Shown: positions 41,115-58,734 of the stretch, piece after piece
Layout: every line of letters begins with the position of its first letter
Numbering within the stretch: position 1 is the first letter of the stretch
Source: Paracoccus caeni
GTDB taxonomy: Bacteria > Pseudomonadota > Alphaproteobacteria > Rhodobacterales > Rhodobacteraceae
DNA: 64,000 nt
Assembly (NCBI RefSeq): GCF_016629665.1
Contig: NZ_JAEPRQ010000002.1
Coordinates: forward strand, 62,001 to 126,000
Direction of reading: 5' to 3'
Program-made: the position numbers and the translations under genes
Notes under the pieces: generated by a model
What the model was told of the DNA's origin: nothing
Databases searched by the model: none
Seen by the model: the letters and a program-made list of their open reading frames with translations, nothing else

Positions 41115-41140
41115 CTCCCGTGCCGACTGAGAGCTGAGGG

Positions 41141-41307
41141 CCGTGCCCGACCGTCGGGTGGGCACGGCAACGCTTGTGCCGGACACTTTATGGTGCCGCC
41201 CGGTCGGACCTCACCTTGCGCGAGACATCACCAAAGTGCCCACCCGGTGGGGGCGGTCGGGCACGGCCCGGCGGTGCCTGCGGCACCTTGATTCCGGGCG
41301 AGCGCTT
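41141..41307. repeat. Structured intergenic repeat, copy R1
   Basis: A 167-base element. Outer arm CCGTGCCCGACCG (41141-41153) pairs perfectly with CGGTCGGGCACGG (41254-41266); inner arm GGGTGGGCAC (41156-41165) pairs with GTGCCCACCC (41236-41245); a 3' hairpin GGTGCC/GGCACC (41273-41287) follows; then TTGATTCCGGGCG and GCGCTT close the element. Conserved middle: CACTTTATGGTGCCGCCC. It lies between the amidohydrolase stop and the RNA ligase gene. See R2 and R3. Confidence 0.9.
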
Positions 41308-41469
41308 GAGCCACACCGCCATCGTTGAAGAGCTGAGGGCTGGTGTCGTCTGTCAGATATTTCTGTCTTTCAGTCAAATTTCTGACCCAAGAGGCCTCCA
41401 ATCCGGGATCAGGCAATCGACGTTAAGAGCCCATAGCTGCCGATCAGCACTTTGTGCTAACACCTGTCC

Positions 41470-42090
41470 ATGAAAAAATACGGCCGCACATTTCACCTGC
41501 CAATTTCACCCGGCGCCACCAGCGACGACAAGATCATGTCGTCACTGGATGGGCTTAAAGTCGAAGACCTCGTTGTCACAGAAAAAATGGATGGCGAGAA
41601 TACGACCATTCATTCAGGCGGCTCCCACGCGCGCAGCCCGGACAGCCGCTACCACCCCTCCCGCGATTGGCTCAAAGCGTTTGCCGCAGGTATTTCGCCC
41701 TATCTGATGGAAGGTGAGCGCATCGTTGGTGAGAACCTCTACGCACGCCATTCTGTAGCATATGATGCGCTGCCTTCATATTTCCTGGGTTTCGCCTGGA
41801 TCGTGCATGAGGAGGTGCAGCCGTGGGATCTGACCTTGGCGCGGTTTGAGGAGTTACGCGTTCAAGCGGTGCCAACGCTCTATCGCGGCCCCTATCAGAA
41901 TGGCATTTTTGATCGCCTTGCAAAGTCCCTCGATTTGACGAGGCAGGAGGGTTTCGTGGTGCGCACGGCAGAGGGGTTCATGGAAAGTGCGATGCCAGAA
42001 CGCGTAGGCAAGTATGTGCGGGAAGGGCACGTCCAGTCAGAGATACATTGGATGAAGGCCGAACTCATACCCAACAAGCTTGCTGACTGA
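41470..42090 (+). CDS. Stand-alone RNA ligase family protein
   Basis: A 206-residue nucleotidyltransferase fold resembling the Rnl2 class. Motif I is EKMDGE with the AMP-accepting lysine K39, motif III-like GENLYARHS (87-95), motif IV EGFVVR (160-165), and motif V VGKYVR (179-184). Seals 3'-OH and 5'-phosphate RNA ends in related proteins. There is no kinase, phosphatase or toxin partner nearby. It is bracketed by repeats R1 (163 bases before) and R2 (150 bases after), in the same orientation. Slightly more AT-rich than its neighbours. Confidence 0.85.
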   Translation: MKKYGRTFHLPISPGATSDDKIMSSLDGLKVEDLVVTEKMDGENTTIHSGGSHARSPDSRYHPSRDWLKAFAAGISPYLMEGERIVGENLYARHSVAYDALPSYFLGFAWIVHEEVQPWDLTLARFEELRVQAVPTLYRGPYQNGIFDRLAKSLDLTRQEGFVVRTAEGFMESAMPERVGKYVREGHVQSEIHWMKAELIPNKLAD

Positions 42091-42242
42091 CCGGCAGCTT
42101 TGTCCGCATAGCAGACGCCGTGGATCCGGTGAAGTGGGTCAGCTTTGCTTGACGGTTGGGGTGGAAGTGCCTGACGGGACCAGCCGACAAGCACATGAAT
42201 TCATCGCCCTGTGAGTCAAATATCTGTGGAATCAGACAGCGG

Positions 42243-42416
42243 GGCACAGCCGGGGATGGGCACCTGCAACACTTGTGCCTGACACTTTATGGTGCCGCCC
42301 CGTCGAACATTCCCGTGGCGCGCAGCCTCGCCAAAGTGCCCAGCCGCGGGACGGCTGTGCGCTGCCCGGCGTCGCCCGAGGGCGACTTGATTCCGGGCGG
42401 GCGCTTCACAGTCGAA
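42243..42416. repeat. Structured intergenic repeat, copy R2
   Basis: A 174-base copy. Outer arm GCACAGCCG (42244-42252) pairs with CGGCTGTGC (42352-42360), and differs from the R1/R3 arm sequence but keeps the pairing; inner arm TGGGCAC (42257-42263) pairs with GTGCCCA (42336-42342); 3' hairpin GTCGCCC/GGGCGAC (42371-42386). The element ends 6 bases before the stop of the transaminase gene (minus strand). Confidence 0.9.
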
Positions 42417-42421
42417 CGGCT

Positions 42422-43282
42422 TCAGACCGCAGCCTTGCGCATCTCTTCCAGATAGATCTCGCGCAGACGTGTCGCGACCGGACCCACCTGCCCTGCGCCG
42501 ACAGCCGCGCCGTCGATCTCGACCACCGGCATCACGAAGGCCGAGGCCGAGGTAATGAAAGCCTCATCCGCCGCCTGCGCCTCGGCGATGGTAAAGCTGC
42601 GCTCTTCCACCTTCATCTGCGCCTCGCTGGCAAAGCGCAACACGGCCGCGCGGGTGATCCCGTGCAGAATGTCATGCGACAGCGCGCGGGTGATGATCGT
42701 GTTGCCCTTGACGATATAGGCGTTGTTCGAAGTGCCCTCGGTCACTTGGCCATCCTCGACCAGCCATGCATCATCGACGCCGCGCGCCTTGGCCTCCATC
42801 TTGGCCATCGACGGGTAAAGCAGCTGCACCGTCTTGATGTCGCGCCGCGACCAGCGCAGATCCTCGACACTGATCACCTTCCAGCCGGTCTTGGCCGCCG
42901 GATTGTCGGCGAGGCCCGGCTTTGCCTGCGTGAACATCACCACGGTCGGCACGGTATCTTCGGGCGGATAGGCGAAGTCGCGATCGCCCGGATTGCCGCG
43001 CGTCACCTGCAAATAGATCATCCCGTCGGTGATGCCGTTATTCTCGATCAACGTGCGCTGGACGTTTAGATATTCCTCATCCGTCAGCGGGTTGCCCATG
43101 GAAAGCTCGGACAGCGACCGCTTCAGCCGCTCGATATGGCCGTCGAAGTCCAACAGCTTGCCGTCCAGCACGCTGACCACTTCATAGACGCCATCGGCCA
43201 TCAGGAAGCCACGGTCGAAGATCGAGACCGTCGCCCGGTCCTCGGGCAGATATTCACCGTTCACATAGACTGTCCGTGTCAT
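42422..43282 (-). CDS. dat: D-amino-acid transaminase
   Basis: Class IV PLP aminotransferase, 286 residues, starting MTRTVYVNGEYLPED. The PLP lysine is K150 (DIKTVQLLYPS) and E182 lies in TEGTSNN. Amino-acid specificity is inferred from overall similarity to D-AAT rather than BCAT; the latter is possible. It may supply D-Ala/D-Glu. The upstream extension to 43324 lacks homology. Repeat R2 abuts its 3' end. Confidence 0.9.
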   Translation of the reverse strand: MTRTVYVNGEYLPEDRATVSIFDRGFLMADGVYEVVSVLDGKLLDFDGHIERLKRSLSELSMGNPLTDEEYLNVQRTLIENNGITDGMIYLQVTRGNPGDRDFAYPPEDTVPTVVMFTQAKPGLADNPAAKTGWKVISVEDLRWSRRDIKTVQLLYPSMAKMEAKARGVDDAWLVEDGQVTEGTSNNAYIVKGNTIITRALSHDILHGITRAAVLRFASEAQMKVEERSFTIAEAQAADEAFITSASAFVMPVVEIDGAAVGAGQVGPVATRLREIYLEEMRKAAV

Positions 43283-43448
43283 CGAGATCCTCCGTAGCGG
43301 CACGCGGCACGGTCGTGCGCCCAAATGCCCGCCGCCGTCAACCCATCCCGGACCAACCGCGCAGGAAATGATCTTTCCCCTGTTGCATCATCCAGTGCGA
43401 AACATTATTGCTGGATTCGCGTCGAATGTTTTCAAACAGGATCCGATA

Positions 43449-44405
43449 ATGAGTTTCCGCACGCAGCCCCTGCCCCCGGCACGCCTGAACAGGTGTCAGC
43501 TTTTTGGGCCGGGTTCGCGCGTGAGCCTGTTTGAAAAGATGGCGAAATCCGATGCCGATGTGATCAATCTGGACCTTGAGGATTCGGTCGCGCCGGATGA
43601 CAAGGAACAGGCGCGCAAGAACATCATTCAGGCAATCGGCGACATCGACTGGGGGCAGAAAACCCTGTCGGTCAGGATCAACGGGCTGGACACGCCCTTC
43701 TGGTATCGCGATGTCGTCGATCTTCTGGAACAGGCGGGCGAACGGCTGGACCAGATCATGATCCCGAAAGTCGGGAACGCCGCCGATATCTATGCCGTCG
43801 ATGCGCTGGTCACCGCGGTAGAGCGCGCCAAGGGCCGCAGCAAACCGATCCGCTTCGAGGTTATCATCGAAAGCGCCGCCGGTATCTGCCATGTCGAGGA
43901 AATCGCCGCCTCGTCGCCACGGATGGAGGCGGTCAGTCTGGGTGCGGCGGATTTCGCGGCCTCGATGGGCATGGCCACGACCGGAATTGGCGGCACGCAA
44001 GAGAATTACTACATGATCAGGGAAGGGCAGAAATACTGGCCCGATCCGTGGCACTGGGCGCAGACCGCAATCGTCGCCGCCTGCCGCACGCATGGGCTGC
44101 TGCCGGTCGATGGCCCCTTCGGCGATTTCAGTGATACCGACGGTTTCGTCGCGCAGGCCCGCCGCTCGGCCACGTTGGGCATGGTCGGCAAATGGGCGAT
44201 CCATCCCAGTCAGGTAGCGCTGGCCAACGAAGTCTTTTCGCCCAGCGAAGCCGCCATCGGCGAAGCGCGCGAGATTCTGGCAGCAATGGATGAGGCCAAG
44301 CGTTCCGGCGCGGGAGCCACAGTTTACAAAGGTCGTCTGGTTGATATCGCCTCGATCAAGCAGGCCGAGGTGATCGTCCGTCAGGCGGAACTGATCGCGG
44401 GATAA
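43449..44405 (+). CDS. mcl1: L-malyl-CoA/beta-methylmalyl-CoA lyase
   Basis: A 318-residue CitE-family lyase like Rhodobacter Mcl1, which cleaves malyl-CoA and condenses glyoxylate with acyl-CoA in the ethylmalonyl-CoA pathway. Motifs: LFGPGSRVSLFEKMAKS, NLDLEDSVAPDDK and the catalytic-site VIIESAAG. Start MSFRTQPLPPAR. Glyoxylate-cycle-free acetate use is implied if other pathway genes are elsewhere (inference). Confidence 0.93.
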   Translation: MSFRTQPLPPARLNRCQLFGPGSRVSLFEKMAKSDADVINLDLEDSVAPDDKEQARKNIIQAIGDIDWGQKTLSVRINGLDTPFWYRDVVDLLEQAGERLDQIMIPKVGNAADIYAVDALVTAVERAKGRSKPIRFEVIIESAAGICHVEEIAASSPRMEAVSLGAADFAASMGMATTGIGGTQENYYMIREGQKYWPDPWHWAQTAIVAACRTHGLLPVDGPFGDFSDTDGFVAQARRSATLGMVGKWAIHPSQVALANEVFSPSEAAIGEAREILAAMDEAKRSGAGATVYKGRLVDIASIKQAEVIVRQAELIAG

Positions 44406-44458
44406 GAGCTACCACCGGCGAGGATCAGTGGAGGGGTCCAAGCCGAATGTGGGGGGAG

Positions 44459-44495
44459 ACGGGCCTCGCTGAAAGATGCGGGGCCCGTTGCATTT
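44459..44495 (+). terminator. Putative terminator of mcl1
   Basis: Stem ACGGGCC/GGCCCGT with a 16-base loop, then TTGCATTTT. It lies 54 bases after the mcl1 stop. The T-run is interrupted, so strength is uncertain. Confidence 0.55.
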
Positions 44496-44578
44496 TGAAG
44501 ATGAGCTTGGTGGGCAGCACGCTGAACCAGCGGCAAACCTTCATCGGCATGTCGGAACGCATTGCGGGCAAAGTGCCC

Positions 44579-45493
44579 CTATTGCCGCCGCCATTGGGAA
44601 GGGCTGGTCCCGTATCTCAGCTTGAACGCCCGGCTGAACGCCGCTTCCGAGTTATAACCGGCGGCTTCCGCGACTTCGCTGATCCGTCGCGTTGTCCGCT
44701 GCAACATCTCGGCCGCCTTATCCAGACGCAGGCCGATCAGATAGCGCAGCGGCGGCTCGCCCACCAGCGTCGCAAATCGACCCGCAAAGACCGAGCGTGA
44801 CATCCCTGCAGCCCGCGCCAGTTCAGAGACCGTCCATGCGCGTGCGGGCTGGGCATGCATCGCGCTCAGTGCGCGGCTGATCGCGGGATCGGAGGCACCG
44901 GAAAGCCAGCTTGCCCGTGCGTCAGGCTCTTGCGCCCACAACCGCAACACCCTGATCAGCAACAGCTCGACGATCCGCGAAATCATGATCGCGCCACCCG
45001 GTTCGCGCGTCTCGATCTCTTGCAAGGCAAAGCGCGAGGCGGTCTCCAGCCAATCCATCGCGCCGTCGGTGATCTGGCGCAGGATGATGACCTTGGGCAG
45101 GCAGGCCAACAAACGGTAAGACAGCCGCTCATCGATATGGAATGTCCCGCGCAACCATACGCAGTCGCCGAATGCGGGTTTCGCCTTCGAGGTCCCCGCT
45201 TCAGGCGACAGGGGCGGATAAGACACCGCGAAAGCCGAACCCGAGGCCAGAAGCGCGACATCGCCCCGTTCCAGCTTGGCGGGCTGCTGCCCGAATGCGT
45301 CGCAATGAAGAAGCACCGATCCGCTTCTGACGATCAGCAATGACCGCTCGGCGCTGTCGAAAACAGTCATAGCAGACAAATCAGACGAATATGCTTCCAT
45401 ATTGCCACCGATGAAGCGTATCGATGTCAGAACATCTGACAATGCATCGGGCAAATCAGGTGTTTGTGCAATGTTTTCGCGAGTAACCGTCAT
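44579..45493 (-). CDS. AraC-family transcriptional regulator
   Basis: A 304-residue regulator starting MTVTRENIAQT with an N-terminal cupin sensor (DVALLASGSAFAVSYPP) and a C-terminal AraC double helix-turn-helix (AWTVSELARAAGMSRSVFAG and RRISEVAEAAGYNSEAAFSR). Divergent from the alpha/beta hydrolase gene, with a 63-base spacer; control of that gene is the obvious guess. Confidence 0.93.
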   Translation of the reverse strand: MTVTRENIAQTPDLPDALSDVLTSIRFIGGNMEAYSSDLSAMTVFDSAERSLLIVRSGSVLLHCDAFGQQPAKLERGDVALLASGSAFAVSYPPLSPEAGTSKAKPAFGDCVWLRGTFHIDERLSYRLLACLPKVIILRQITDGAMDWLETASRFALQEIETREPGGAIMISRIVELLLIRVLRLWAQEPDARASWLSGASDPAISRALSAMHAQPARAWTVSELARAAGMSRSVFAGRFATLVGEPPLRYLIGLRLDKAAEMLQRTTRRISEVAEAAGYNSEAAFSRAFKLRYGTSPSQWRRQ

Positions 45494-45556
45494 AGTTTCT
45501 CGTTCTATCTTCTCTATTCTTCCACTGCAATTCACGCGTTCCCATGGAGGTAGTTT

Positions 45557-46243
45557 ATGACTGAAGATACGACCATCATTCTCGTTCACGGTTTCTGGGG
45601 TGGTGCCGCACATTGGAGCAAGGTCATCGCCGAACTTGACCGGCAAGGGCATCGCAATGTCCGCGCGGTCGAACTGCCGCTGACTTCGCTTGCCGATGAT
45701 GCCGGACGACTGCGCAAAATGGTGGCCCAGCAGGCTGGCAATGTGGTGCTTGTCGGTCACTCCTATGGCGGCGCGGTGATCACCGAGGCGGGCGATCTGC
45801 CGAATGTGACCGGGCTTGTCTATATCGCGGCCTTTGCACCCGATGCAGGCGAAAGCCCCGGCGCGATCACCGAGCAGAATCCGCCGGAAGCGATTGCCAG
45901 CGTCGTTCCCGACAGCGATGGCTATCTTTGGATCGACTACGAGAAATACCACGAAAGCTTCTGTCAGGATCTGGACGCGGAAGAGGCGTGGATCATGTCG
46001 GTCACGCAGAAGGCGCCTTTAGGCTCGACCTTCGGCGACAACATCACCGCACCGGCATGGCGGAAGAAACCCAGTTGGTATCAGATCTCCAGCGCCGACC
46101 GGATGATCAACCCCGAGAACCAAAGACGCATGGCCGAAAGGATGGCCCCGCAAAAAACCATCACGCTGGATGCGGGTCATGCCTCGCTTGCATCGCAACC
46201 TGCCGAGGTCACGGCGCTGATCCTCGAAGCTGCAAAAGCCTGA
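45557..46243 (+). CDS. Alpha/beta hydrolase
   Basis: A 228-residue serine hydrolase with HGFWGG oxyanion motif, nucleophile S69 in GHSYGG and H208 in DAGHASL. Similar proteins act on esters; the substrate is unknown. Strong GGAGG upstream of ATG 45557. Divergent from the AraC regulator. Confidence 0.93.
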   Translation: MTEDTTIILVHGFWGGAAHWSKVIAELDRQGHRNVRAVELPLTSLADDAGRLRKMVAQQAGNVVLVGHSYGGAVITEAGDLPNVTGLVYIAAFAPDAGESPGAITEQNPPEAIASVVPDSDGYLWIDYEKYHESFCQDLDAEEAWIMSVTQKAPLGSTFGDNITAPAWRKKPSWYQISSADRMINPENQRRMAERMAPQKTITLDAGHASLASQPAEVTALILEAAKA

Positions 46244-46504
46244 CCAAGTCGCGAGAGGGTGGTGGCCCGACAGGGTCGCCACCTTGCTCAACCGCGTCAG
46301 GCCATCGCGTCTATCGCCACCGCCAGTTTATTCAGATCGGCCGCATAGAAACCCGCCGCATTGATGCAGTTCGTCTCAAGAAGCCGCAAACTTTGGTCGA
46401 TGGCATCTGATCGTGCCGCAAACACTACCAACTGGGTATCACAACATCTTCAGGATCGTGCATCTTCCGCTCGAAGATCAAATCGCGGCAGGCCGAACAA
46501 GCCC
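46244..46504. other. Intergenic region with a possible small remnant
   Basis: A 261-base gap. The minus strand holds an open frame ending in AADLNKLAVAIDAMA that might be the C-terminus of a lost gene, without a ribosome site. I do not call a gene here. Confidence 0.4.
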
Positions 46505-47488
46505 CTAGGACGCCCCTGCCTCCGCCGTCGCGCGACGGTCGATTTCGGCCAGGACGATACCGTGGAAATCGTTCAGGAACATATGCCCCCAGAGGTTCAG
46601 ATAGCCGTTGATCGGGGTCTGGACGCGATACCACGTGGTCAGGCTAAGCTGCGTCCCGCCCGAGGGCAGCGGCGTCAGTTCATATTCGCCGCGCACCAGC
46701 TCCAGATAATCGCTGTCGGGACGGATGTGATCGTCGATGCCTCTTGGGATCGAGTCCGCGTCGAACTCGAAACCCCATGACAGGCGGCGATCCTGTTCCC
46801 ATTCGGTGATCCGCTCGCGGAAGCTGACGCCGCGCGTCCATGACAATTCCCGCGCCGCGCCGACGCCGCTGCCCTGCATCCGCGCGTCCAGAGGCTTCGG
46901 AATGAACATCAGGCTATGGCTGACCGTCCAGCCCAGTTGATCGGGGTCGATATCGGGAATGTCCACGGTATTGCGCCAGACAACATCTGCGGGGGCGTCG
47001 ATCTCGACCACCGAGGTGACATGGGTGATCTGGTTCGGCCAGGTGATCATGTTCTCGACCGGCAGGACCAGCAGCGGCAGAACCGCGATGCAGGGGGTCA
47101 GATTGCGCTTGCCGCGGTTTCGCACCCAGGCATGGGTCAGATAGGCACCCAAAGCCAGTGTCGGCAATGCAATCGGGATCGCCATGATGATGCAGACGAT
47201 GCCCTCGCCAAAGAACAGCGCGGTGATCGAGAGGATGCCGAAGAACACGCCCCAGCTTGCAAAGATCGAGTCCAGAACGCGACGCTCGGCGCGTGGATCG
47301 TAGAATGCGGCGACGACGCTGCCGACGCCGGTGGGGAACAGCACAAGTCCTGCGATGGCGGGCAGGCCCTCATCGACATGCTGTCCGGCCCAGACCAGCA
47401 TATAAAGCAGAATGCCGTAGATCAGCCCGATCGGAATGGCGAGCTTCAGCCGCTTCAGAACTTCACGCAAGACGCACCTCATTTGCAA
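46505..47488 (-). CDS. SRPBCC-domain membrane protein
   Basis: A 327-residue protein: four predicted membrane segments in residues 1-145, then a C-terminal START/SRPBCC-like lipid-binding domain (HVTSVVEIDAPADVVWRNTV ... GYLNLWGHMFLNDFHG). The combination suggests a membrane-tethered ligand carrier; ligand unknown. The start MQMRCVLREVLKRLK may be a few codons off. Confidence 0.82.
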   Translation of the reverse strand: MQMRCVLREVLKRLKLAIPIGLIYGILLYMLVWAGQHVDEGLPAIAGLVLFPTGVGSVVAAFYDPRAERRVLDSIFASWGVFFGILSITALFFGEGIVCIIMAIPIALPTLALGAYLTHAWVRNRGKRNLTPCIAVLPLLVLPVENMITWPNQITHVTSVVEIDAPADVVWRNTVDIPDIDPDQLGWTVSHSLMFIPKPLDARMQGSGVGAARELSWTRGVSFRERITEWEQDRRLSWGFEFDADSIPRGIDDHIRPDSDYLELVRGEYELTPLPSGGTQLSLTTWYRVQTPINGYLNLWGHMFLNDFHGIVLAEIDRRATAEAGAS

Positions 47489-47646
47489 ATCGGGATCGCG
47501 GGCAGCGATTTCTGCTGGCCTTCAGGCGGGGGCGGAATAGCCCTGCGGGCCTGCGTTGAAAAGAACGAACTGAAACAATGGCTAAGATGACTTGAAACGC
47601 GTTAAATCACCAATGACAACGAAATCCGGGCACGCCCCCCTGCCCC

Positions 47647-48504
47647 TCACGCCCGGCGCAGCTTTCGGAATGCGGCCGAGGCGCCCCATCCGGCAAAGAC
47701 CGCGATGCCAAGCGACATCAGCCCGTAAACCAGCGGCTGATCGAAGGCGAGACGGTAGAGCCAGCGTTCAAGCCCGACCTTGCGGACATTGATCGGGGCG
47801 ACGAAGACATCCATCACCTCGCCATTGCGAAGCAGGAAGATGCGCGTCTTGTAGGCCCCCTCGACCAGATTGGCCGGCAGGCGGACATCGGCGCGAAACA
47901 ACGTCTGGTCGATCAACGACACGCTGCCCTGATCCAGCCGGTAAAGTCCCTCTTGTTCGCGGATACGGATCAGCGCCTCGGTAAAGGGAACGGCGCTTTC
48001 GACCGCGATCTGCCCGGCAAAGGCCCGCATCGCGTGCGACAGCGAGATCCGATAGCGGTTATCCCATTCCGGCAGCAGGATCTGATCCAGAGGGCCAGAG
48101 GTGGCAACGGCATAAAAGCCGGGGGCCGCGCCGATCTGGACGGATTCGGAGTTGATCCAGATCCCCGCCTTACGCTCTTTCCGCCAGACGGTCGCGCTGC
48201 GCGAGGGGGCTTCGACGGTGACGATGATCTGCAAGGGTGGTCCTTGAGGGATCGGCGTCTCACGTTTGACGGCACCGTAGATCAGGATCTCTGACCCGTC
48301 GAAACTTGCGGTGATCGCAACGGAATCGCTGGAAAGCCCCGCCACGACCTGCTCGACCGGGTGGACCTGACCTGCCGTCGGCGCCGCCGGACTGTTTTCG
48401 AGCGGAAGCGCGACAGCACCCGGATCTTCGGTCACGACCGCATCCTGGGCCAGCGCCGAGCCAGCGAGAAGCGAGAGGCAAAGGATTGCGGGACCAAAGC
48501 GCAT
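47647..48504 (-). CDS. TIGR02186 family periplasmic/membrane protein
   Basis: A 285-residue protein with signal peptide (MRFGPAILCLSLLAGSALAQ) and a C-terminal membrane segment (GLMSLGIAVFAGWGASAAF). The TIGR02186 family is typically paired with TauE/SafE exporters in alphaproteobacteria, as here: the upstream gene overlaps by one base. Its role in export is unknown. Confidence 0.9.
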   Translation of the reverse strand: MRFGPAILCLSLLAGSALAQDAVVTEDPGAVALPLENSPAAPTAGQVHPVEQVVAGLSSDSVAITASFDGSEILIYGAVKRETPIPQGPPLQIIVTVEAPSRSATVWRKERKAGIWINSESVQIGAAPGFYAVATSGPLDQILLPEWDNRYRISLSHAMRAFAGQIAVESAVPFTEALIRIREQEGLYRLDQGSVSLIDQTLFRADVRLPANLVEGAYKTRIFLLRNGEVMDVFVAPINVRKVGLERWLYRLAFDQPLVYGLMSLGIAVFAGWGASAAFRKLRRA

Positions 48505-49421: not shown

Positions 49422-49599
49422 ATCGTTCGCGTTGCCTGTGCTGTCAGAACCATGCAACGCGTCGCCCTTCAGGTCAAACCGCTTTCAGGGCCGGAGCAAG
49501 ACTTGAAGCGAGGCTGTTGCATCGCTAATCAGGAAAGAAGATTTCAACTGGAATGACTTGCGCGCCCAAGGGCGTGCCCTAACTGGCAGCGGGGGCAGT

Positions 49600-50400: not shown

Positions 50401-50405
50401 GCCGG

Positions 50406-51071: not shown

Positions 51072-51106
51072 CCCCCGCAGGTGGCAGGCAAGATGAGGAT
51101 GACCGA

Positions 51107-52228
51107 ATGAGCAGAACTTTGAGGCTGGTGGCCAGCGCGGGCTTGGCCGTGGCGATGCTGGCATCTTGCGGGCCGAACGGCAATTTCGATCCCGATCTGC
51201 GTCGATGGGCACCGGGCGGGCTGAACACCTCGGACGCCGCCGCCCGCGCCGCACCGCGTCCCGCGCCCGACAATCGCGGCGTCATCACCTTCCCCAATTA
51301 TCAGGTCGCAATTGCGGGCCGAGGCGACACGCCCGCCTCGATCGCAAGCCGCCTTGGTCTCAACGCGCAGGAATTGGCCGGGCATAACGCCCTGCCCGCC
51401 GATGCGACGCTGAATGCAGGCCAGCCGCTGGTTCTGCCGCGCCGGATCGCCGGATCGGCGGGCACTGGCGGCGGCGGCACCGGCGGGGTCAGCGATCCCT
51501 TTGCTGGCGGCGGCGCTGCGGCGCAACCCACCGCCCCTGCGGCGACCAGCGCTGCCGGACAGCCGGGCCAGCACGTCGTGGCCGCGGGCGAGACCGCTTG
51601 GTCCATCGCACGGCGCTACAACGTCAATGTGCAGGATCTGGCAAGCTGGAACAGCCTGCCGTCGAACATGACCTTGCGTGTCGGTCAGCGCCTGATGATC
51701 CCGGTTGCCGGGCAAGCCGCGCCTGCGGGCAACACCACCACCGCCCCCGGCAGCGGCAGCCCGACGCCGCGCCCGCCATCCGCCGCACAACCGCTGCCGA
51801 ACGAGACGCCCCGCGCCGCCGCCGATCCTGGCCCGGAAGCGCCGGCGACCGATCTGGGTGCAACCCGGACGGCGGCATCCGGCAGCGGTCAGTTCCGCAT
51901 GCCGGTCGCAGGCTCGATCATTCGGGTCTATGAAAAGGGCCGCAACGACGGCATCGACATCGCCGCAACGTCAGGGACGGCGGTGAATGCCGCAGGCGGT
52001 GGCACGGTGGCGGCAGTCACCAAGGACACCGCTGGCACGCCGATCGTGGTGGTCCGCCACGACGGCAATCTGATGACGGTCTATACCGGCATGGACGGGC
52101 TTAACGTCAACAAGGGCGATCAGGTCAGTGCCGGGCAGCAGATCGGCAAGGCGGGCAATGGCGGCTTCGTTCATTTCGAAGTGCGTCAGGGTTTCGACAG
52201 CGTCGATCCCGAACGCTATCTGCAATAA
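51107..52228 (+). CDS. LysM/M23 lipoprotein (NlpD-like)
   Basis: A 373-residue lipoprotein: lipobox MLASC (C21), two LysM domains (about 66-111 and 152-197), a Pro/Ala-rich linker and a C-terminal M23 domain. The M23 domain lacks the first metal histidine (NDGIDI instead of HxGxD), and the HxH motif has a single histidine (FVHFEVR), so it is probably an amidase activator rather than a hydrolase, as NlpD. Start at 51107 (GAGGATG before it); an earlier in-frame ATG at 51068 overlaps pcm. Confidence 0.93.
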   Translation: MSRTLRLVASAGLAVAMLASCGPNGNFDPDLRRWAPGGLNTSDAAARAAPRPAPDNRGVITFPNYQVAIAGRGDTPASIASRLGLNAQELAGHNALPADATLNAGQPLVLPRRIAGSAGTGGGGTGGVSDPFAGGGAAAQPTAPAATSAAGQPGQHVVAAGETAWSIARRYNVNVQDLASWNSLPSNMTLRVGQRLMIPVAGQAAPAGNTTTAPGSGSPTPRPPSAAQPLPNETPRAAADPGPEAPATDLGATRTAASGSGQFRMPVAGSIIRVYEKGRNDGIDIAATSGTAVNAAGGGTVAAVTKDTAGTPIVVVRHDGNLMTVYTGMDGLNVNKGDQVSAGQQIGKAGNGGFVHFEVRQGFDSVDPERYLQ

Positions 52229-52243
52229 GGAAGAGGGTGGCGA

Positions 52244-53728
52244 TTACGCCACCCCTCCGAACGACAGCAGATCGACCATCCTGAAATCATCGCCAGTCAT
52301 CGTGCTGTCGATGGTTTTCAGGAACGGCTGCCAGTCAGGATCCTGCGTCAGATAGGAACCGCTATCCCCCTGAAGCAGGCCCAGAAACACCTCGGCCACG
52401 ATGCGCCCGCCGACCGGGCCCAGCCGTTCGCCATTCTCGATCAGATCGGCCTCGCGCAGGATGTAGAACCACAGCGGCGTGCGGTCATCCATGCCATGCG
52501 GTTTCAGATCCTCAAGATCGCCGCGCGACAGTTCAGGCACCTGCATCGCCTTTGCAACCCGTTGGCCCGAAGGCAGCGAAAAGGTCAGATGTCGCAGCAG
52601 GTTGCGCTGCGCCAGCGAGGCAGGGTTGGTCTTCGGATCAGGCGATGAGACCACCGAGGGCGGCAGCCTGAACAGAGCCGAGGACAGGCGCGTGTCGATT
52701 CTTTTGTTATGGCGGACCAGACCGTCCCCGAAATCGAAGAAGGTCGGCCAGTCGATGAACCGGCGGTCCGAGCGGCAGCCGCCCGACAGATCGTCCGGAT
52801 CGGTGGGGTTCGATGGTGTCGGCGTGAAGATCATCGCAAAGAAGGGCGATCCGCCATTGCCGGTGAAATTCGCGCGATAGGACGGCCGGATCTGGCTATG
52901 GCCAAAGCGATAGGCCGCGACCGAGAATTCGACCGGGATATAGGCCTCGTTCCGCCATTTGTAGAACTTGCGACCGTTTTTCAGGATATCGTCGATCATC
53001 GCCTGTCCGCAGGTCATGCGCAGATATTCGTGGACGATGATCCACTGATAATGCCAGCGGACGATGCGCTGCGCCTCGGCAAAGACCTCATCTGCGGCTT
53101 TCAGCTTGATCTTGGTGCGGACATAATCGACGACCGCGTTGTGAAAGCTGATGAAGGCCACCTGAAGCTGGCTGATGATCAGGTTCTCATCATTGCGGGG
53201 ATCGCCTATCAGCGCGACATTCTGACGGTTGCGCGGCAGGTCCCATTTGTCAGGCGCCCCCGTCGGCTCAAGATACATCTTCGCCGCATTGGCAGGCAAC
53301 GTATCGTAAAGATGCGGCGATCCGCCGGGACCGGAGCCATAGACATTATCCAGCCCGAAACTGGGCGTGCGGAAGTTGGCGATCTGTTCGGGGTCGGCCT
53401 GTCGTTCCAAAGTGGATGTCGGATCGAAGGTGATGTCGTGGTCAAGGAATTGACCCAGAAACGTCACCCCTGCCGTCTGGGTCGGATTATCGCTGTTCTT
53501 CTGCGAGAATTGCGGCTCGGTAATCAGATCCTGCGGGCTCTGGTCCAGATCGTCTCTGGCATCCATAACGCCGTTGACCTTGCCGATATCCAGCAGCGCC
53601 GCGCGCACATCGGGCGTATCCGCCGCGAAGGGGGGCAGTTCGCCGAACATCCGCCCGAACCTGCCTTCATCCGAATATTTCGACCTCGGTGGGACGATAT
53701 CTCTTGGATATACGCCATGCCTGGGCAT
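52244..53728 (-). CDS. Animal-type haem peroxidase
   Basis: A 493-residue protein starting MPRHGVYPRDIV, GGGGAGT upstream. Distal histidine H97 is in FLDHDITFDPTS (which also carries the calcium site), distal arginine is in DPRNDEN, and proximal histidine H277 is in FGHSQIRP. Family members oxidise halides or organic substrates with peroxide; no secretion signal is visible. The earlier in-frame start (53752) would add eight residues. Confidence 0.92.
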   Translation of the reverse strand: MPRHGVYPRDIVPPRSKYSDEGRFGRMFGELPPFAADTPDVRAALLDIGKVNGVMDARDDLDQSPQDLITEPQFSQKNSDNPTQTAGVTFLGQFLDHDITFDPTSTLERQADPEQIANFRTPSFGLDNVYGSGPGGSPHLYDTLPANAAKMYLEPTGAPDKWDLPRNRQNVALIGDPRNDENLIISQLQVAFISFHNAVVDYVRTKIKLKAADEVFAEAQRIVRWHYQWIIVHEYLRMTCGQAMIDDILKNGRKFYKWRNEAYIPVEFSVAAYRFGHSQIRPSYRANFTGNGGSPFFAMIFTPTPSNPTDPDDLSGGCRSDRRFIDWPTFFDFGDGLVRHNKRIDTRLSSALFRLPPSVVSSPDPKTNPASLAQRNLLRHLTFSLPSGQRVAKAMQVPELSRGDLEDLKPHGMDDRTPLWFYILREADLIENGERLGPVGGRIVAEVFLGLLQGDSGSYLTQDPDWQPFLKTIDSTMTGDDFRMVDLLSFGGVA

Positions 53729-53931
53729 CTTGGTTACTCCCCTTATAAACACCTGTTTCCTCGTGATTATCGGCGCCTGGCCGATCCTCTGAAAATATCA
53801 CGAAAAGGAGAGCTGCATATAAAATTAGCAAGAAACGGGGAGCGCGGTTTACATCGCGTTTGGGATATTTTCAGCGGCAGATATTGGTTCCGCACAAGCC
53901 ATTGGAAATTTGGTCATTCGGAATCGATATT

Positions 53932-54477
53932 TCAAAATTCTTTATCCAGAAGGCGGTCGATATCTTCATAAGTCCGGTCCCATTCCTCCTCATCGATCGG
54001 AAGAAATCGCAGATAGTGCAGAAGAAACGCACCCTCGCTGGCCAGAAAACCAAGCCATAACCGCCGCCCCTCGAGCGTTGAAAGGTCCAGTCCCAGAAGT
54101 CTGTCCCGATACCATTCCCGAGTCGATTCGAGGTTTTCGGGCGTTTGCAGCAGTGCCGCCATCAGGCTGGCGGCCTTGGTATAAGAGGTCTCGTCACCCT
54201 CTTTCGTGGCGGTGATATGCGCGCGGATGCGCCGCTCGGGGTCCAGAGAGTCACCCGTCAATTCATCGAAGCGCTGATCGTAACCGATGTTCCAGCGGGC
54301 AAACATCGCATCGATGATCTCGTCCTTGCTGGAGAAGGTATATTGCACCCCGCCCTTGGTGATGCCGCTTGCCTTGGCAAGTGCATCGATGGTCAGCGCC
54401 GCGGCCCCCCGCTCTCGCACCAGCTTTTCCGCGGCATCAAGCAACTGTTCGCGGTCGATCTTCTTCGGTCTCGCCAT
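53932..54477 (-). CDS. TetR-family transcriptional repressor
   Basis: A 181-residue repressor starting MARPKKIDREQLLDAA; GGAAGAGG upstream. HTH: TIDALAKASGITKGGVQYTF. Divergent from the MFS pump gene, with a palindrome in the gap; repression of the pump is the expected role. Substrate unknown. Confidence 0.94.
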   Translation of the reverse strand: MARPKKIDREQLLDAAEKLVRERGAAALTIDALAKASGITKGGVQYTFSSKDEIIDAMFARWNIGYDQRFDELTGDSLDPERRIRAHITATKEGDETSYTKAASLMAALLQTPENLESTREWYRDRLLGLDLSTLEGRRLWLGFLASEGAFLLHYLRFLPIDEEEWDRTYEDIDRLLDKEF

Positions 54478-54493
54478 CTGCCTCTTCCATTTC

Positions 54494-54507
54494 AATACGA
54501 TCGTATT
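54494..54507. promoter_or_regulatory. Putative TetR operator between tetR and the MFS gene
   Basis: A perfect 14-base palindrome AATACGATCGTATT lies between the divergent regulator and efflux genes, 17 bases upstream of the TetR start and 69 bases upstream of the MFS start. Its place and symmetry fit a TetR dimer site. Confidence 0.75.
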
Positions 54508-54575
54508 TAAATGATCGTCACATGATTCGCCATCCGGCCATCGTGCCGGATCGCATCTTTTTCAGAGGTTCCGAC

Positions 54576-56063
54576 ATGACTACCCGTTCGCCCTGGCTTA
54601 TTCTGGCCATCGTTTCGACGGCCCTGTTTCTGATCGTCGTCGATATGACGGTTCTCTATACGGCTTTGCCGACGCTGACGCACGATCTGGACGCGACGGC
54701 GGTTGAAAAGCTGTGGATCGTCAATGCCTATTCGCTGACCGTGGCGGGCCTATTGCCCGCGTCGGGCGCGCTTGGCGACCGTTACGGGCACAGGCGTATG
54801 TTCATGATCGGGCTGGTCATTTTCGGAGCGGCCTCGCTGATGGCGGGGATGGCATCCTCGGCCGAGATGCTGATCGCGGCGCGGGCGGTGCTGGCCGTGG
54901 GCGCGGCGGCGATGATGCCCGCGACACTGTCGATCATCCGACAAAGTTTCGACGATCCCGATCAACGCTCGTTGGCGATTGGCGTCTGGGCGGCGGTCGC
55001 GTCTGGCGGCGCCGCGCTTGGGCCGGTTCTGGGCGGCGTCATTCTGGAGCATTTCCACTGGGGAATGGTGTTCCTGATCAACCTGCCGGTGGTGCTGATC
55101 GCGCTGCCGCTTGCGATGATCTATGTGCCGCGCGCGCGTCTGGACGGCGGGCATCCGTTCGATCCGTTGGGTTCGGTCCAGATCCTTGTCGCCCTGCTGG
55201 GTCTGACGCTGGCGATCAAAGAGGTCGCGAAGCCCGAACCGACATGGCAGGGTTTCGTTCTGCCCTTGCTGGTCGGTGCGGCGGCGCTGACCCTGTTCCT
55301 GCGCCGCCAGATCCGCAGCGCCCATCCGATGATCGATCTGAACCTGTTCCGCGACCGCCGTTTCTCGGCAGGCGTGATCGGGGCGATCTCTGCCGCGGCA
55401 GCGTTGATGGGGATGGAGCTGGTCATCACGCAGCGCCTGCAACTGGTCTCTGAACTGTCGCCGTTGCAGGCGGGGCTGTTCATCCTGCCGATCCCGCTTG
55501 CCTCGTTCATCGCCGGTCCGGTGGCCGGGATGGCGCTGTCGCGGGTCGATGCGGGGCGGCTGATGACGCTGGCCCTTGCGGCAACGGGGCTTGGCGCGAT
55601 CATCTATACCGCCAGTTTCGACGGCGCGGTGCCGCTGCAATTGCTGGCCTTCGCCATCATGGGCGCGGGGATCGGAGCGACCATGACAGCCGCCTCTTCG
55701 GCCATCATGATGAACGCACCGGCAAACCGCGCCGGGATGGCAGCATCGGTCGAGGAAGTGTCCTACGAGTTGGGCGGCGCGCTTGGGATCGCGCTTCTGG
55801 GCAGCCTGATGTCGGGCGTCTATACGGCGACCTATCTGGCAGGCGGCGACGCGGCCCCGGCGCTGGCGGCGGATTCGCTGGATCAGGCGCGGCTGGTCGC
55901 CGAGAGCCTGCCCGTGGCCGAGGCGCGGCAGGTGATCGGGGCTGGCATTGCCGCCTTTGATCGGTCGGTGCTGGTCGTTATGATCGCCTCGACGACGGTG
56001 CTGGTGGCGGCATCGCTGTGGATCGGGCGGCTGTCGCGCCGCATGGTCGGGCTTCGCGCCTGA
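54576..56063 (+). CDS. MFS drug transporter, DHA2 family (14 TM)
   Basis: A 495-residue proton-coupled exporter with about 14 membrane segments, MFS motif A as GDRYGHRR, and an N-terminal MTTRSPWLILAIVSTALFL. Similar to QacA/SmvA-type pumps for cationic compounds. Controlled presumably by the divergent TetR. A terminator follows. Confidence 0.93.
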   Translation: MTTRSPWLILAIVSTALFLIVVDMTVLYTALPTLTHDLDATAVEKLWIVNAYSLTVAGLLPASGALGDRYGHRRMFMIGLVIFGAASLMAGMASSAEMLIAARAVLAVGAAAMMPATLSIIRQSFDDPDQRSLAIGVWAAVASGGAALGPVLGGVILEHFHWGMVFLINLPVVLIALPLAMIYVPRARLDGGHPFDPLGSVQILVALLGLTLAIKEVAKPEPTWQGFVLPLLVGAAALTLFLRRQIRSAHPMIDLNLFRDRRFSAGVIGAISAAAALMGMELVITQRLQLVSELSPLQAGLFILPIPLASFIAGPVAGMALSRVDAGRLMTLALAATGLGAIIYTASFDGAVPLQLLAFAIMGAGIGATMTAASSAIMMNAPANRAGMAASVEEVSYELGGALGIALLGSLMSGVYTATYLAGGDAAPALAADSLDQARLVAESLPVAEARQVIGAGIAAFDRSVLVVMIASTTVLVAASLWIGRLSRRMVGLRA

Positions 56064-56098
56064 GGCCCCTGTCGGATCGGTATTTGGACAACGAAGAA

Positions 56099-56137
56099 GC
56101 GGCGCGGTCTCTGCTGACAGGCCGCGCCGCGTGTTTG
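56099..56137 (+). terminator. Terminator after the MFS gene
   Basis: Stem GCGGCGCGG/CCGCGCCGC (56099-56107 with 56122-56130) with a 14-base loop, followed by GTGTTTGTT. Moderately U-rich tail. Confidence 0.65.
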
Positions 56138-56225
56138 TTGCAGAAATCGTGCCATGTCAGAGTCGTTTCCGGTTCGGCGCAGGAAAGCCGTTGACGCGCC
56201 GCAAGGCGCGCGGCAAGCAATCGGC

Positions 56226-57677
56226 ATGATCGATTTGCGCCCGGTGGCACAGCCTATTGGACGGACCGTCGCAACCCTTGGGGTGGCGATGCTGTTGCCC
56301 GCTGCTGTCGATTGGTGGCACGGCAACCCGCATTGGCAGGCCTTCCTGCACAGCGGCGTTCTGACCTTCGTCATCGGTCTTCTGATCACCGTCGCCACGC
56401 GCGGCGAGGACAAGTCGTTGAACCTGCAGCAGGCTTTCCTGCTGACCTCGGGGCTGTGGATCGCGATCCCGATCTTCGGCACCCTGCCCTTCATTCTGGG
56501 CCAGCCCCATGCCAGTTTCACCGACGCCTTCTTCGAGTCGATGTCGGGCGTCACCACGACCGGCACCACCGTCTTTGAAACGCTGGACAAGCTGCCGATG
56601 GGCACGCATCTGTGGCGTGCCATCCTGCACTGGATCGGCGGTCTGGGGATCGTCGTGGTGGCGATGATCTTCCTGCCGATCATGAAGGTCGGCGGCATGC
56701 AGTTCTTCCGCTCGGAAGGGTTCGACACGCTGGGCAAGATCCTGCCCCGCGCGGGCGAGATCGCCGCCGAGATGACCCGCATTTACCTGTTCCTGACCGG
56801 CGCCTGCATCGTCACCTATCTGCTGCTTGGCATGTCGGGTTTCGACGCGGTGGTGCAGGCGCTTGGCACGGTCTCGACCGGGGGCTTCTCGAACTACGAT
56901 CTGAGTTTCGGGCAGTTTCTGGGGCCGATTGAATGGGCGGCTTCGGTCTTCATGATTCTGGCGACCATTCCGTTCATCCGCATGGTGCAGGCGATGCGCG
57001 GGAATTTCGAACCGATCTGGCAGGACAAGCAGATCCGGGCCTATCTGCGGTGGGTCTTCTATTGCTGCGCGCTGATCGTGATCTATCGGTTGATCGACAC
57101 CCGCCATGAGGCAGAGCCGCTGGACGTGATCCGAGAGACTGTCTTCAACACAATCTCGACCTTCTCCGGCACCGGCTTCTTCTCGACCGATGTGATGAGT
57201 TGGGGGCACCTGCCCTTCACGCTGCTGTTCATTGGCGGGCTGATCGGCGGCTGCACCGGCTCTACCACCTGCTCGGTCAAGGTGTTCCGCTATCTGGTGC
57301 TGTTTCAGGCCGTGAAGGCGCAGTTGAAGCGGATGCTGTCACCGCATCGCGTCTATCCCCTGCGATATGAGGGGCGGCCGCTGGATCAGGATGTCATCGA
57401 CTCGGTCATGGCGTTCTTCACGCTGTTCATGCTGACATTCGGTCTGCTGATCGTCGGCCTGTCGCTGACCGGGCTTCACCCGCGAACCGCCCTGACCGCC
57501 GCATGGACCGCGATCGCCAATATCGGCCCGATCTGGGGCCCCGAAATCACCGCGAACGGTTCGATTGCCGAATTCCCTGAATCGGCGAAATGGATGATGA
57601 TCGTCGGGATGTATCTGGGCCGGCTCGAGCTGGTCTCGGTTCTGGTGCTGTTCCTGCCGCGATTCTGGCGGTCCTGA
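56226..57677 (+). CDS. TrkH family potassium uptake protein
   Basis: A 483-residue membrane protein, pore-forming subunit of the Trk system. MIDLRPVAQPIGRTVATLG is the usual family start (56226); ATG 56154 would add 24 non-homologous residues. Selectivity-filter segments such as SGVTTTGTT and STVSTGGFS-like stretches occur in each repeat. TrkA is not in the window. Confidence 0.93.
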   Translation: MIDLRPVAQPIGRTVATLGVAMLLPAAVDWWHGNPHWQAFLHSGVLTFVIGLLITVATRGEDKSLNLQQAFLLTSGLWIAIPIFGTLPFILGQPHASFTDAFFESMSGVTTTGTTVFETLDKLPMGTHLWRAILHWIGGLGIVVVAMIFLPIMKVGGMQFFRSEGFDTLGKILPRAGEIAAEMTRIYLFLTGACIVTYLLLGMSGFDAVVQALGTVSTGGFSNYDLSFGQFLGPIEWAASVFMILATIPFIRMVQAMRGNFEPIWQDKQIRAYLRWVFYCCALIVIYRLIDTRHEAEPLDVIRETVFNTISTFSGTGFFSTDVMSWGHLPFTLLFIGGLIGGCTGSTTCSVKVFRYLVLFQAVKAQLKRMLSPHRVYPLRYEGRPLDQDVIDSVMAFFTLFMLTFGLLIVGLSLTGLHPRTALTAAWTAIANIGPIWGPEITANGSIAEFPESAKWMMIVGMYLGRLELVSVLVLFLPRFWRS

Positions 57678-57682
57678 GCGCG

Positions 57683-58459
57683 TTAGAGCCGCGTGGCAAG
57701 GACGGTCTGCCGCTCAAGTTCAGCATAGGAATTGGTGGTCATGAAGGCCACATCGACAGCATCGCGACCCACAGCGATCACCGCCATCTCATCCGCATGG
57801 GCCATGCCGGTCGGGTCGATCAGGTGCCAGTTGCCGTCCAGATAGACCTCGACCACCGCGTGAAAATCAGGCGGCTCGACCCCCGGAGCGAAGACGCTGG
57901 CGATGCGGGCGGGGATCTGGGCCGCGCGGCAGAGGGCAATCATCAGATGGGCATAGTCGCGGCAGACGCCCTGACGCGACAGGAAGGTGTCGGCGGCGGT
58001 GGTCTGCGCATCGCTGCTGCCCGAGATGTAATCGAGCCGTTGTTCACACCAGTCGCGGATCGCGGCGACCTTTTGACCGCCGCGTAACTCTCCGAAACGC
58101 TGCGCCGCGAAGGGGATGAAGCGTTCTGCCTGACAATAGCGCGAAGGCAGCATGTAGCGCAGGGCGTCACCCGGCATCTCATCCAGTTCCATCGCCGAAA
58201 GGTTTGGAAAATCCGGGCGCGGTCGGGTGATCTGAACTTCGGCGGAATAGCTGCAGGCGATCTTTTCGGCGGTGCGGATGATGATCTTCTCGCCGACACC
58301 TTCCTCGGCGGGGACGCGGGCGAAATGTTCGACATCGCCGAAGTCGATCTCGGTTTTCAGAAGCTCCTGCCCGGTGGCGCCCGCCGCCTCGATCACAAGG
58401 ATCGCGGGGCCGGGTTGGGCAAGGGTGTAAACAAGTTCGACGTCGATCTTCAGGCGCAT
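57683..58459 (-). CDS. Transglutaminase-like cysteine peptidase family protein
   Basis: A 258-residue protein. Catalytic triad C166 (GVCRDYAHL), H200 (DFHAVVEVY) and D215 (LIDPTGM). N-terminal beta domain precedes it. Function unknown; related proteins cleave or cross-link peptides. Start at MRLKIDVELVYTLAQ (58459); the ORF runs to 58480. Convergent with TrkH, 5 bases apart. Confidence 0.9.
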   Translation of the reverse strand: MRLKIDVELVYTLAQPGPAILVIEAAGATGQELLKTEIDFGDVEHFARVPAEEGVGEKIIIRTAEKIACSYSAEVQITRPRPDFPNLSAMELDEMPGDALRYMLPSRYCQAERFIPFAAQRFGELRGGQKVAAIRDWCEQRLDYISGSSDAQTTAADTFLSRQGVCRDYAHLMIALCRAAQIPARIASVFAPGVEPPDFHAVVEVYLDGNWHLIDPTGMAHADEMAVIAVGRDAVDVAFMTTNSYAELERQTVLATRL

Positions 58460-58565
58460 CGGCAAGGCTCCACTGGTCACATGAAGCGGGAACGCAGCGG
58501 GCTGGCGGCGGGTTCATATCGACTCGGGATTCAACATCTAGCGACAGAGGTGTGCTTAAGCAGAG

Positions 58566-58734
58566 GGCAGTGCCCGACCGCGGGTGGGCACTGCGACAGT
58601 CGTTCCCAGCACTTTATCGTGCCACCCCGTCGTCGCTATCTGTTGCGCGGAACATCACCGAAGTGCCCGCCCGTCCGGGCGGTCGGGCACTGCCCGGCGT
58701 CGCCCAAGGGCGACTTGATTCCGGGCGGGCGCTT
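58566..58734. repeat. Structured intergenic repeat, copy R3
   Basis: A 169-base copy. Outer arm CAGTGCCCGACCG (58568-58580) pairs with CGGTCGGGCACTG (58680-58692). 3' hairpin CGCCC/GGGCG (58701-58712). Inner arms GGGTGGGCAC and GTGCCCGCCC pair with one wobble. Conserved CACTTTATCGTGCCACCCC in the middle. Ends 2 bases from the tex stop codon. Confidence 0.9.

What the first reader, a model, noticed from the sequence alone, without database searches (positions are those of the whole stretch)
41141..58734. Three-copy, ~170-base structured intergenic repeat with covarying stems
Seen: R1 (41141-41307), R2 (42243-42416) and R3 (58566-58734) share order and conserved blocks (CACTTTAT-GTGCC-CCC, CACC(A/G)AAGTGCCC, TTGATTCCGGGCG-GCGCTT) in one orientation. 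The outer arms differ in sequence between copies yet stay complementary: CCGTGCCCGACCG with CGGTCGGGCACGG in R1, GCACAGCCG with CGGCTGTGC in R2, CAGTGCCCGACCG with CGGTCGGGCACTG in R3. The 3' hairpin also swaps both sides (GGTGCC/GGCACC versus GTCGCCC/GGGCGAC). Such compensatory changes indicate selection on secondary structure or on mobility as a folded strand. Inference: either an undescribed RNA/mobile repeat family or a bidirectional terminator-like element. Two copies abut stops of genes read from the other strand.
Basis: seen in the sequence. Interest (0 to 1): 0.85.

Follow-up and report, generated by a model that had tools for sequence, protein, structure and literature searches.

The report
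Folded repeat found behind genes
Three similar stretches of about 176 letters in this window belong to a large, apparently undescribed family of folding repeats that mostly sits just behind genes in one family of bacteria; it has likely spread as small mobile DNA and is predicted to shape the ends of messenger RNAs.

Summary
R1, R2 and R3 are 3 of 59 full-length copies (>150 bits, ~176 nt) among 79 covariance-model matches in the host genome. Matches occur in 119 of 196 sampled genomes of the order, 61 of 87 genera; in a class sample, 3 of 289 genomes match, all of the host's family. No Rfam family matches.

Two long stems (P1/P2) and a 3' hairpin (P4) covary against a phylogeny-aware null: 18 of 37 pairs reach z>4, against 1 of 400 background pairs. 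The small central hairpin is not supported.

55 of 59 copies lie downstream of at least one gene. Copies amplified separately in different lineages. Yet at 8 sites shared by two related species the element persists, in 5 while both flanks decayed. No target duplication, Y1 transposase or reverse transcriptase was found in the host.

Best reading: a new member of the CIR/REP/ERIC kind of structured intergenic repeat, spread as non-autonomous mobile DNA and probably kept as a folded mRNA 3'-end element. Function and mobiliser are not shown.

The parts
41132..41307 (+). R1, full-length copy of the repeat
   Evidence: cmsearch 171.5 bits, model 1-176
42231..42406 (+). R2, full-length copy of the repeat
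   Evidence: cmsearch 161.2 bits, model 1-176
58559..58734 (+). R3, full-length copy of the repeat
   Evidence: cmsearch 196.9 bits, model 1-176, the best-scoring copy of the genome
41142..41153 (+). R1 stem P1, 5' strand (pairs with 41254-41265)
   Evidence: coordinates; covariation of P1
41155..41164 (+). R1 stem P2, 5' strand (pairs with 41237-41246)
   Evidence: coordinates; covariation of P2
41266..41299 (+). R1 3' hairpin P4 (41266-41271 with 41294-41299; 41273-41278 with 41282-41287), with GATTC at 41290-41294 on its unpaired side
42241..42252 (+). R2 stem P1, 5' strand (pairs with 42352-42363)
42253..42262 (+). R2 stem P2, 5' strand (pairs with 42337-42346)
42364..42398 (+). R2 3' hairpin P4, with GATTC at 42389-42393
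58569..58580 (+). R3 stem P1, 5' strand (pairs with 58680-58691)
58581..58590 (+). R3 stem P2, 5' strand (pairs with 58664-58673)
58610..58617 (+). R3 conserved CACTTTAT box in the central domain (R1: 41184-41191; R2: 42283-42290); a hairpin drawn around it is not supported by covariation
58692..58726 (+). R3 3' hairpin P4, with GATTC at 58717-58721
41470..42090 (+). RNA ligase-like gene bracketed by R1 and R2; this stretch is missing between the same two neighbours in the three relatives whose gap was read
   Evidence: Pfam PF09414, 85.5 bits; gaps

Best explanation
R1-R3 are three of 59 full-length copies of a structured ~176-nt intergenic repeat family of the order Rhodobacterales that has likely spread as a small non-autonomous mobile element and would act, where it sits behind genes, as a folded 3'-end element of mRNA. 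Shown: the family, its copy number and distribution, the P1/P2/P4 fold by covariation, the position behind genes, lineage-specific amplification, and retention at shared sites in two species with the element better conserved than its flanks. Inferred: that copies moved with an enzyme supplied in trans, long enough ago that no two copies in the host exceed 91.5% identity. Also inferred: that transcripts of one or both neighbouring genes run into the element and that its GC-rich stems stop polymerase or 3' exonucleases, as reported for REP elements. The enzyme is not identified.
For: 59 full-length copies in the host; 119 of 196 order genomes; 75 of 80 named loci from a 3'-motif scan carry a model match at E<=0.01. 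Covariation: 18 of 37 pairs z>4 against 1 of 400 background pairs. Position: 55 of 59 host and 91 of 97 external copies downstream of a gene; convergent gaps 16 of 59 and 41 of 97 against 20 of 179 host background gaps. Half of the gene ends beside copies (35 of 69) have under 25 nt between stop and element, and canonical terminators are fewer there. Mobility: all 59 host copies have their nearest relative in the host among 102 sequences compared. In-place constraint: 8 shared sites, element identity 0.57-0.87; in 5 of 8 both 50-nt flanks are at 0.24-0.54 (unrelated flanks mean 0.36, maximum 0.52); 7 double compensatory changes against 2.3 expected, reached in 4 of 2000 shuffles (the alignment was fitted to the model).
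Against: No expression data. In two of the 8 shared sites the flanks are nearly as similar as the element (0.83 against 0.82 and 0.80; 0.57 against 0.54), and 28 single changes break a pair against 18 that give a wobble pair. Rare variants in the host include 56 other mismatches and 25 A.C against 23 Watson-Crick and 21 G.U. Orientation relative to genes is not consistent: same-direction context 28 against 11 in the host, 20 against 30 outside. Some copies stand beside an intrinsic terminator, and no U-run is conserved across genera. No clean occupied/empty site was found and no mobiliser.
Confidence: 0.5

Rival explanations
1. A purely selfish, now inactive mobile repeat: copies survive behind genes only because insertions elsewhere are harmful, and they do nothing for the host.
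For: Patchy distribution in the genus (6 of 25); lineage-specific amplification; degenerate and internally deleted copies; mismatches among rare variants in the host.
Against: Element better conserved than both flanks in most shared sites, and excess double compensatory changes in place.
Confidence: 0.22
2. A DNA site linked to the cell cycle: the GATTC (CcrM, GANTC) site on the unpaired side of P4 and the orientation relative to replication are what matters, as proposed for CIR elements.
For: GANTC intact in 50 of 59 host and 88 of 106 other copies against 0.05 expected per 40 nt; a CcrM relative in the host; orientation follows GC skew in 75 of 111 copies over five genomes, p 2.7e-4, mostly from G006 with 35 of 45, and in the host's contigs.
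Against: The N position is no more variable than the others (6 of 17 and 8 of 41 changes, p 0.11 and 0.59). No orientation bias in G055 (13 of 24) or G192 (5 of 11), whose skew did not resolve arms, and a runs test is significant in only 1 of 8 genomes.
Confidence: 0.12
3. A multi-copy small-RNA gene family transcribed from its own promoter on the + strand.
For: Order-wide, G.U pairs exceed A.C mismatches on the + strand in P1 (63 to 19) and P2 (89 to 25); conserved unpaired boxes.
Against: P4 inner shows 1 to 10 and P3 35 to 45; copies often begin a few nucleotides behind a stop, with no conserved upstream block that could be a promoter.
Confidence: 0.08
4. The covariation is mutational: template switching between near-identical inverted arms keeps them complementary without selection on structure.
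For: The four arms share sequence within a copy (first against third arm 0.802, permuted 0.700, never reached in 1000), and the alternative pairing H2 covaries too (6 of 10 pairs z>4).
Against: Strand asymmetry of wobble pairs in P1 and P2; P4 covaries although it is not part of the four arms.
Confidence: 0.08

Closest known systems
CIR elements (CcrM-associated intergenic repeats) of Caulobacter and Brucella
   Same: Intergenic, multi-copy, folded into two arms, with a GANTC site exposed in a loop of one arm; mobiliser unknown (description from passages of PMC2229807).
   Different: About 176 nt against ~110; GANTC on the unpaired side of an internal loop, not at a terminal loop; the 5' arm encloses a central domain of about 75 nt; no match outside the host's family in the samples searched. 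CIR sequences themselves were not at hand.
Br-REP1 and Br-REP2 of Bradyrhizobium
   Same: 3'-UTR and convergent-gene location, GC-rich palindromes that contain GATTCCGG, as P4 does (consensus from passages of PMC5082802; likeness judged by eye).
   Different: Much shorter units; no P1/P2 part and no CACTTTAT box in the printed consensus.
ERIC elements of enterobacteria
   Same: Intergenic, 100-200-nt class, folded, tens to hundreds of copies, effects at 3' ends reported (passages of PMC10969869 and PMC2229807).
   Different: ERIC has a TA target duplication and terminal inverted repeats; no duplication signal here; different host group.
REP elements with RAYT (Y1) transposases
   Same: Hairpin repeats behind genes; reported to block 3' exonucleases and to act in termination (passage of PMC5082802).
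   Different: REP units are short single hairpins (recalled); no PF01797 match in the host or in G006, the two richest genomes of the genus sample.

Membership tests
CIR elements | Strictly intergenic | tested here: met
   58 of 59 host copies overlap no called gene; one overlaps by 6 nt (own gene caller)
CIR elements | Conserved GANTC in an exposed loop | tested here: met
   50 of 59 and 88 of 106 copies; but no N-position signal, so methylation as the reason is not shown
CIR elements | GANTC at a terminal loop; two arms joined by a linker; ~110 bp | tested here: not met
   176 nt, GATTC on the side of an internal loop, arms adjacent without linker
CIR elements | Sequence relation to CIR1-4 | not testable with these tools
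   Chen and Shapiro 2003 is not held and CIR sequences are not at hand
REP/RAYT | Y1 transposase (PF01797) in the genome | tested here: not met
   none in G000 or G006; present in 3 of 25 genus genomes, two with the repeat (G008, G015) and one without (G021)
ERIC/MITE | Target-site duplication at the ends | tested here: not met
   no excess of equal 3-9-mers at any offset tested among 59 copies; old copies may have lost it
ERIC/MITE | Parent insertion sequence with the same ends | tested here: inconclusive
   no recurrent mobility gene seen by eye in the 25 largest of the neighbour clusters from 814 open frames; genomes were not searched for it as a whole
Intrinsic terminator | GC hairpin followed directly by a U-run | tested here: not met
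   a T-rich tail follows GGGCGC in the host consensus and is not conserved in other genera
Known Rfam family | Score above a gathering cut-off | tested here: not met
   only a tRNA in the window; at E<=1 two eukaryotic/viral microRNA models far below cut-off at R3

The most novel reading that the evidence does not exclude
A bacterial counterpart of a SINE: the folded ~176-nt + strand, as RNA or single-stranded DNA, is the mobile form, inserted at the replication fork with a strand preference beside gene ends by an enzyme that is neither a Y1 transposase nor a known-type reverse transcriptase of the host. Its nearly two-fold symmetric P1/P2 helix is the docking site of a dimeric protein, and copies are then kept as CcrM-marked 3'-end elements.
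Probability: 0.1. Interest if true: 0.85.

Novelty: new member of a known kind. Interest (0 to 1): 0.55.

Why it matters
If the 3'-end role holds, a repeat of tens of copies per genome shapes the ends of many mRNAs in a large group of bacteria and has gone unannotated. It is a clear case in which a mobile-looking repeat is retained with structural constraint at shared sites, so domestication of such repeats becomes directly testable. The coupled four-arm pattern and the GATTC loop tell which mutants to make. What mobilises CIR- and ERIC-type repeats is an open question, and this family offers many genomes of one genus with and without copies for a gene-presence comparison.

Tried and rejected
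RAYT/IS200-type mobilisation: rejected as the present mobiliser in the host; PF01797 matches 3 of 25 genus genomes, G008 and G015 (with the repeat) and G021 (without), none in G000 or G006. Reverse transcriptase (PF00078): 9 of 25 genus genomes, among them G006 and G008 but not G000, G015, G018 or G024. A carrier gene next to the copies: 814 neighbouring open frames clustered, the 25 largest clusters looked at by eye without a family search, no recurrent mobility gene. Target-site duplication: no signal. Central hairpin P3: conserved in sequence, not supported by covariation. Local hairpins H1/H2 as the main fold: weaker than P1/P2 (1 of 10 and 6 of 10 pairs z>4). Phage carriage: no blastn match among phages; two viral contigs carry the 3' motif and were not followed. 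Plasmids: 85 records, all Pseudosulfitobacter; the 40 listed cover 37% of the query. GANTC-specific selection: not shown. HRC-8-4, a published Rhodobacterales motif, lies between ccoNOQP and ccoGHIS and is a terminator-like stem, so not this (passages of PMC8632094). Clean empty sites: comparisons of close loci gave none, because neighbouring sequence differed as well.

Rows dropped before counts: 2 of 46 nhmmer hits, matched over fewer than 120 positions; the order-wide set of 121 sequences left out duplicates, lengths outside 150-200 and 29 of the 44 host copies in A2; orientation used only copies printed in cut lists (G055 24 of 27, G192 11 of 13, G173 20 of 46, G234 11 of 17, G006 45 of 45). 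G173 was sampled for GC skew over the first 2.86 of 4.01 Mb. Of the host's 20 weaker matches I inspected 9.
Full report
What is there. The three copies are present on the + strand at 41132-41307, 42231-42406 and 58559-58734. A DNA search of the own genome gave 42 matches. A covariance model built from 44 copies gave 79 matches at E<=0.01: 59 full-length copies above 150 bits and 20 weaker ones. Nine weaker ones were inspected: one is a diverged full-length copy and eight are 76-83-nt forms that look like deletions between the direct repeats formed by the arms, three joining the first arm to the third and five the second to the fourth.

Distribution. Six of 25 genomes of the genus have matches (of 41 genomes searched, none of the 16 others). 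In the order sample it is 119 of 196 genomes and 61 of 87 genera, with at most 14 candidates scored per genome, so these are lower bounds. In a class sample it is 3 of 289, all three of the host's family, with at most 9 candidates scored per genome.

Fold. On the 44 host copies, P1 (columns 11-22 with 127-138), P2 (24-33 with 110-119), P3 (54-57 with 64-67) and P4 (139-144 with 169-174; 146-151 with 157-162) together pair in 94.1% of cells; the covariation score is 0.216 against 0.097 shuffled (0 of 500) and at most 0.053 for slid partners. Two measures are not clear of the shuffles: pairs with a change on both sides (11; 25 of 500) and further pair types (28; 415 of 500). On 121 sequences of mean identity 0.60, a tree-based null gives 18 of 37 pairs with z>4 against 1 of 400 random pairs; none of the four P3 pairs is supported. 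Over all 14,028 column pairs, 4 reach E<0.05: three in the structure and one in the alternative pairing of the two 3' arms. Within a copy the first arm matches the third at 0.802 against 0.700 permuted. Thus the long helix is nearly two-fold symmetric, and part of the covariation could come from template switching.

Which strand. Order-wide, G.U pairs exceed A.C mismatches on the + strand in P1 (63 to 19), P2 (89 to 25) and outer P4 (7 to 2), but not in P3 (35 to 45) or inner P4 (1 to 10). Between two species the count is 18 to 10, and rare variants in the host show none (21 to 25). So the + strand is favoured as the folded one, as RNA or single-stranded DNA, but not proven.

Where it sits. 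55 of 59 host copies and 91 of 97 external copies lie downstream of at least one gene; convergent gaps are over-represented (16 of 59 and 41 of 97 against 20 of 179 host background gaps) and divergent ones rare (4 of 59 and 6 of 97 against 48 of 179) (own codon-usage gene caller trained on the host). Orientation relative to genes differs: same-direction contexts are 28 against 11 in the host and 20 against 30 outside. Gene ends beside the element carry fewer canonical terminators: 5 of 69 before the element against 29 of 100, and 12 of 69 against 33 of 100 anywhere in the gap; shuffled control 7 of 200. The first comparison searches a shorter stretch in the element set. Terminators do stand beside some copies in other genomes.

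How it evolves. Among 102 sequences, all 59 host copies have their nearest relative in the host; the highest identity between host copies is 0.915 and the mean 0.756. Two other species of the genus share 8 sites, out of 11 copies in one and 17 in the other. At these, element identity is 0.57-0.87; non-orthologous copies average 0.61 with a maximum of 0.74. In 5 of 8 pairs both 50-nt flanks are at 0.24-0.54, against a mean of 0.36 for unrelated flanks; in one pair the flanks (0.82, 0.80) are as similar as the element (0.83), and in one the element itself is at 0.57, which has lost 42 nt. Stem positions are more conserved than loop positions in all 8 pairs. There are 7 double compensatory changes where 2.3 were expected (4 of 2000 shuffles reach 7), 18 single changes to a wobble pair, and 28 single and 3 double changes that break a pair (the alignment was fitted to the model). 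The reading is lineage-specific bursts followed by retention with constraint.

Mobility. No target-duplication signal, no Y1 transposase in G000 or G006, no reverse transcriptase in G000, and no recurrent neighbour gene seen. Between the same two convergent genes, the host has about 1.3 kb (R1, an RNA ligase gene, R2). The blocks aligned to these genes are 185 nt apart in G016, 197 in G005 and 146 in G023, where I read the gap and found other GC-rich inverted repeats. From coordinates alone they are 98 apart in G007, 262 in G014, 964 in G021 and 1977 in G019 (gaps not read). The RNA ligase part matched only a second place in the host and one place in G024 beyond short pieces. So a gene bracketed by two copies was gained there or lost elsewhere.

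Replication. Orientation follows GC skew in G006 (35 of 45) and, weakly, in G234 (9 of 11) and G173 (13 of 20), not in G055 (13 of 24) or G192 (5 of 11); in total 75 of 111, p 2.7e-4. A runs test is significant in 1 of 8 genomes. In the host, contigs with clearly positive skew hold 7 plus and 26 minus copies and those with negative skew 10 plus and 4 minus; four contigs are unresolved.

GATTC. The unpaired side of P4 contains GATTC, a GANTC site, intact in 50 of 59 host and 88 of 106 other copies. The host encodes a relative of CcrM. CIR elements of Caulobacter and Brucella also carry GANTC in an exposed loop (passages of PMC2229807). The N position is not more variable than the others, so selection for methylation is not shown.

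Comparison. It works like REP/ERIC/CIR repeats at gene ends: REP effects on termination and mRNA decay are summarised in PMC5082802 (passages), ERIC effects at 3' ends in PMC10969869 (passages). It fails a tested feature of each (length and loop position for CIR, Y1 enzyme for REP/RAYT, target duplication for ERIC), so I file it as a separate family of the same kind. The eight paper searches listed no paper whose title or printed abstract start describes it; they cover an open-access library only, and of five papers I saw passages, not the whole text (PMC8632094, PMC10969869, PMC3281130, PMC5082802, PMC2229807).

Verdict. A real, large and apparently undescribed family of structured intergenic repeats. 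The fold and the retention in place are shown, the mRNA 3'-end role is the most likely function, and the mobiliser is unknown.

Noticed in passing
window 41470-42090: An RNA ligase-like gene lies between R1 and R2; the same gap in three relatives that were read lacks it.
   Followed up: partly
L011, L028, L033, L199, L203, L208 beside the copies: A second palindromic repeat, GTAGGGTGCGTGCTCCGCACGCACC and variants, stands directly beside several copies elsewhere in the host; its GTAG start recalls REP units (recalled, not tested).
   Followed up: no
L174, L180, L184, gap between the two convergent genes: Relatives carry other GC-rich inverted repeats, some with GGGATATTT, in the gap that holds R1 and R2 in the host.
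   Followed up: no
L217 (G225:C37:33017-33191): A genome of the same genus gave a single match, of the host's subfamily (162 bits; only 14 candidates were scored).
   Followed up: partly
L362, L363: Two viral contigs carry the 3' motif of the repeat.
   Followed up: no
G000:C11:414184-414552 and G000:C20:34222-34630: Tandem pairs in the same orientation, 0.82 and 0.86 identical.
   Followed up: no
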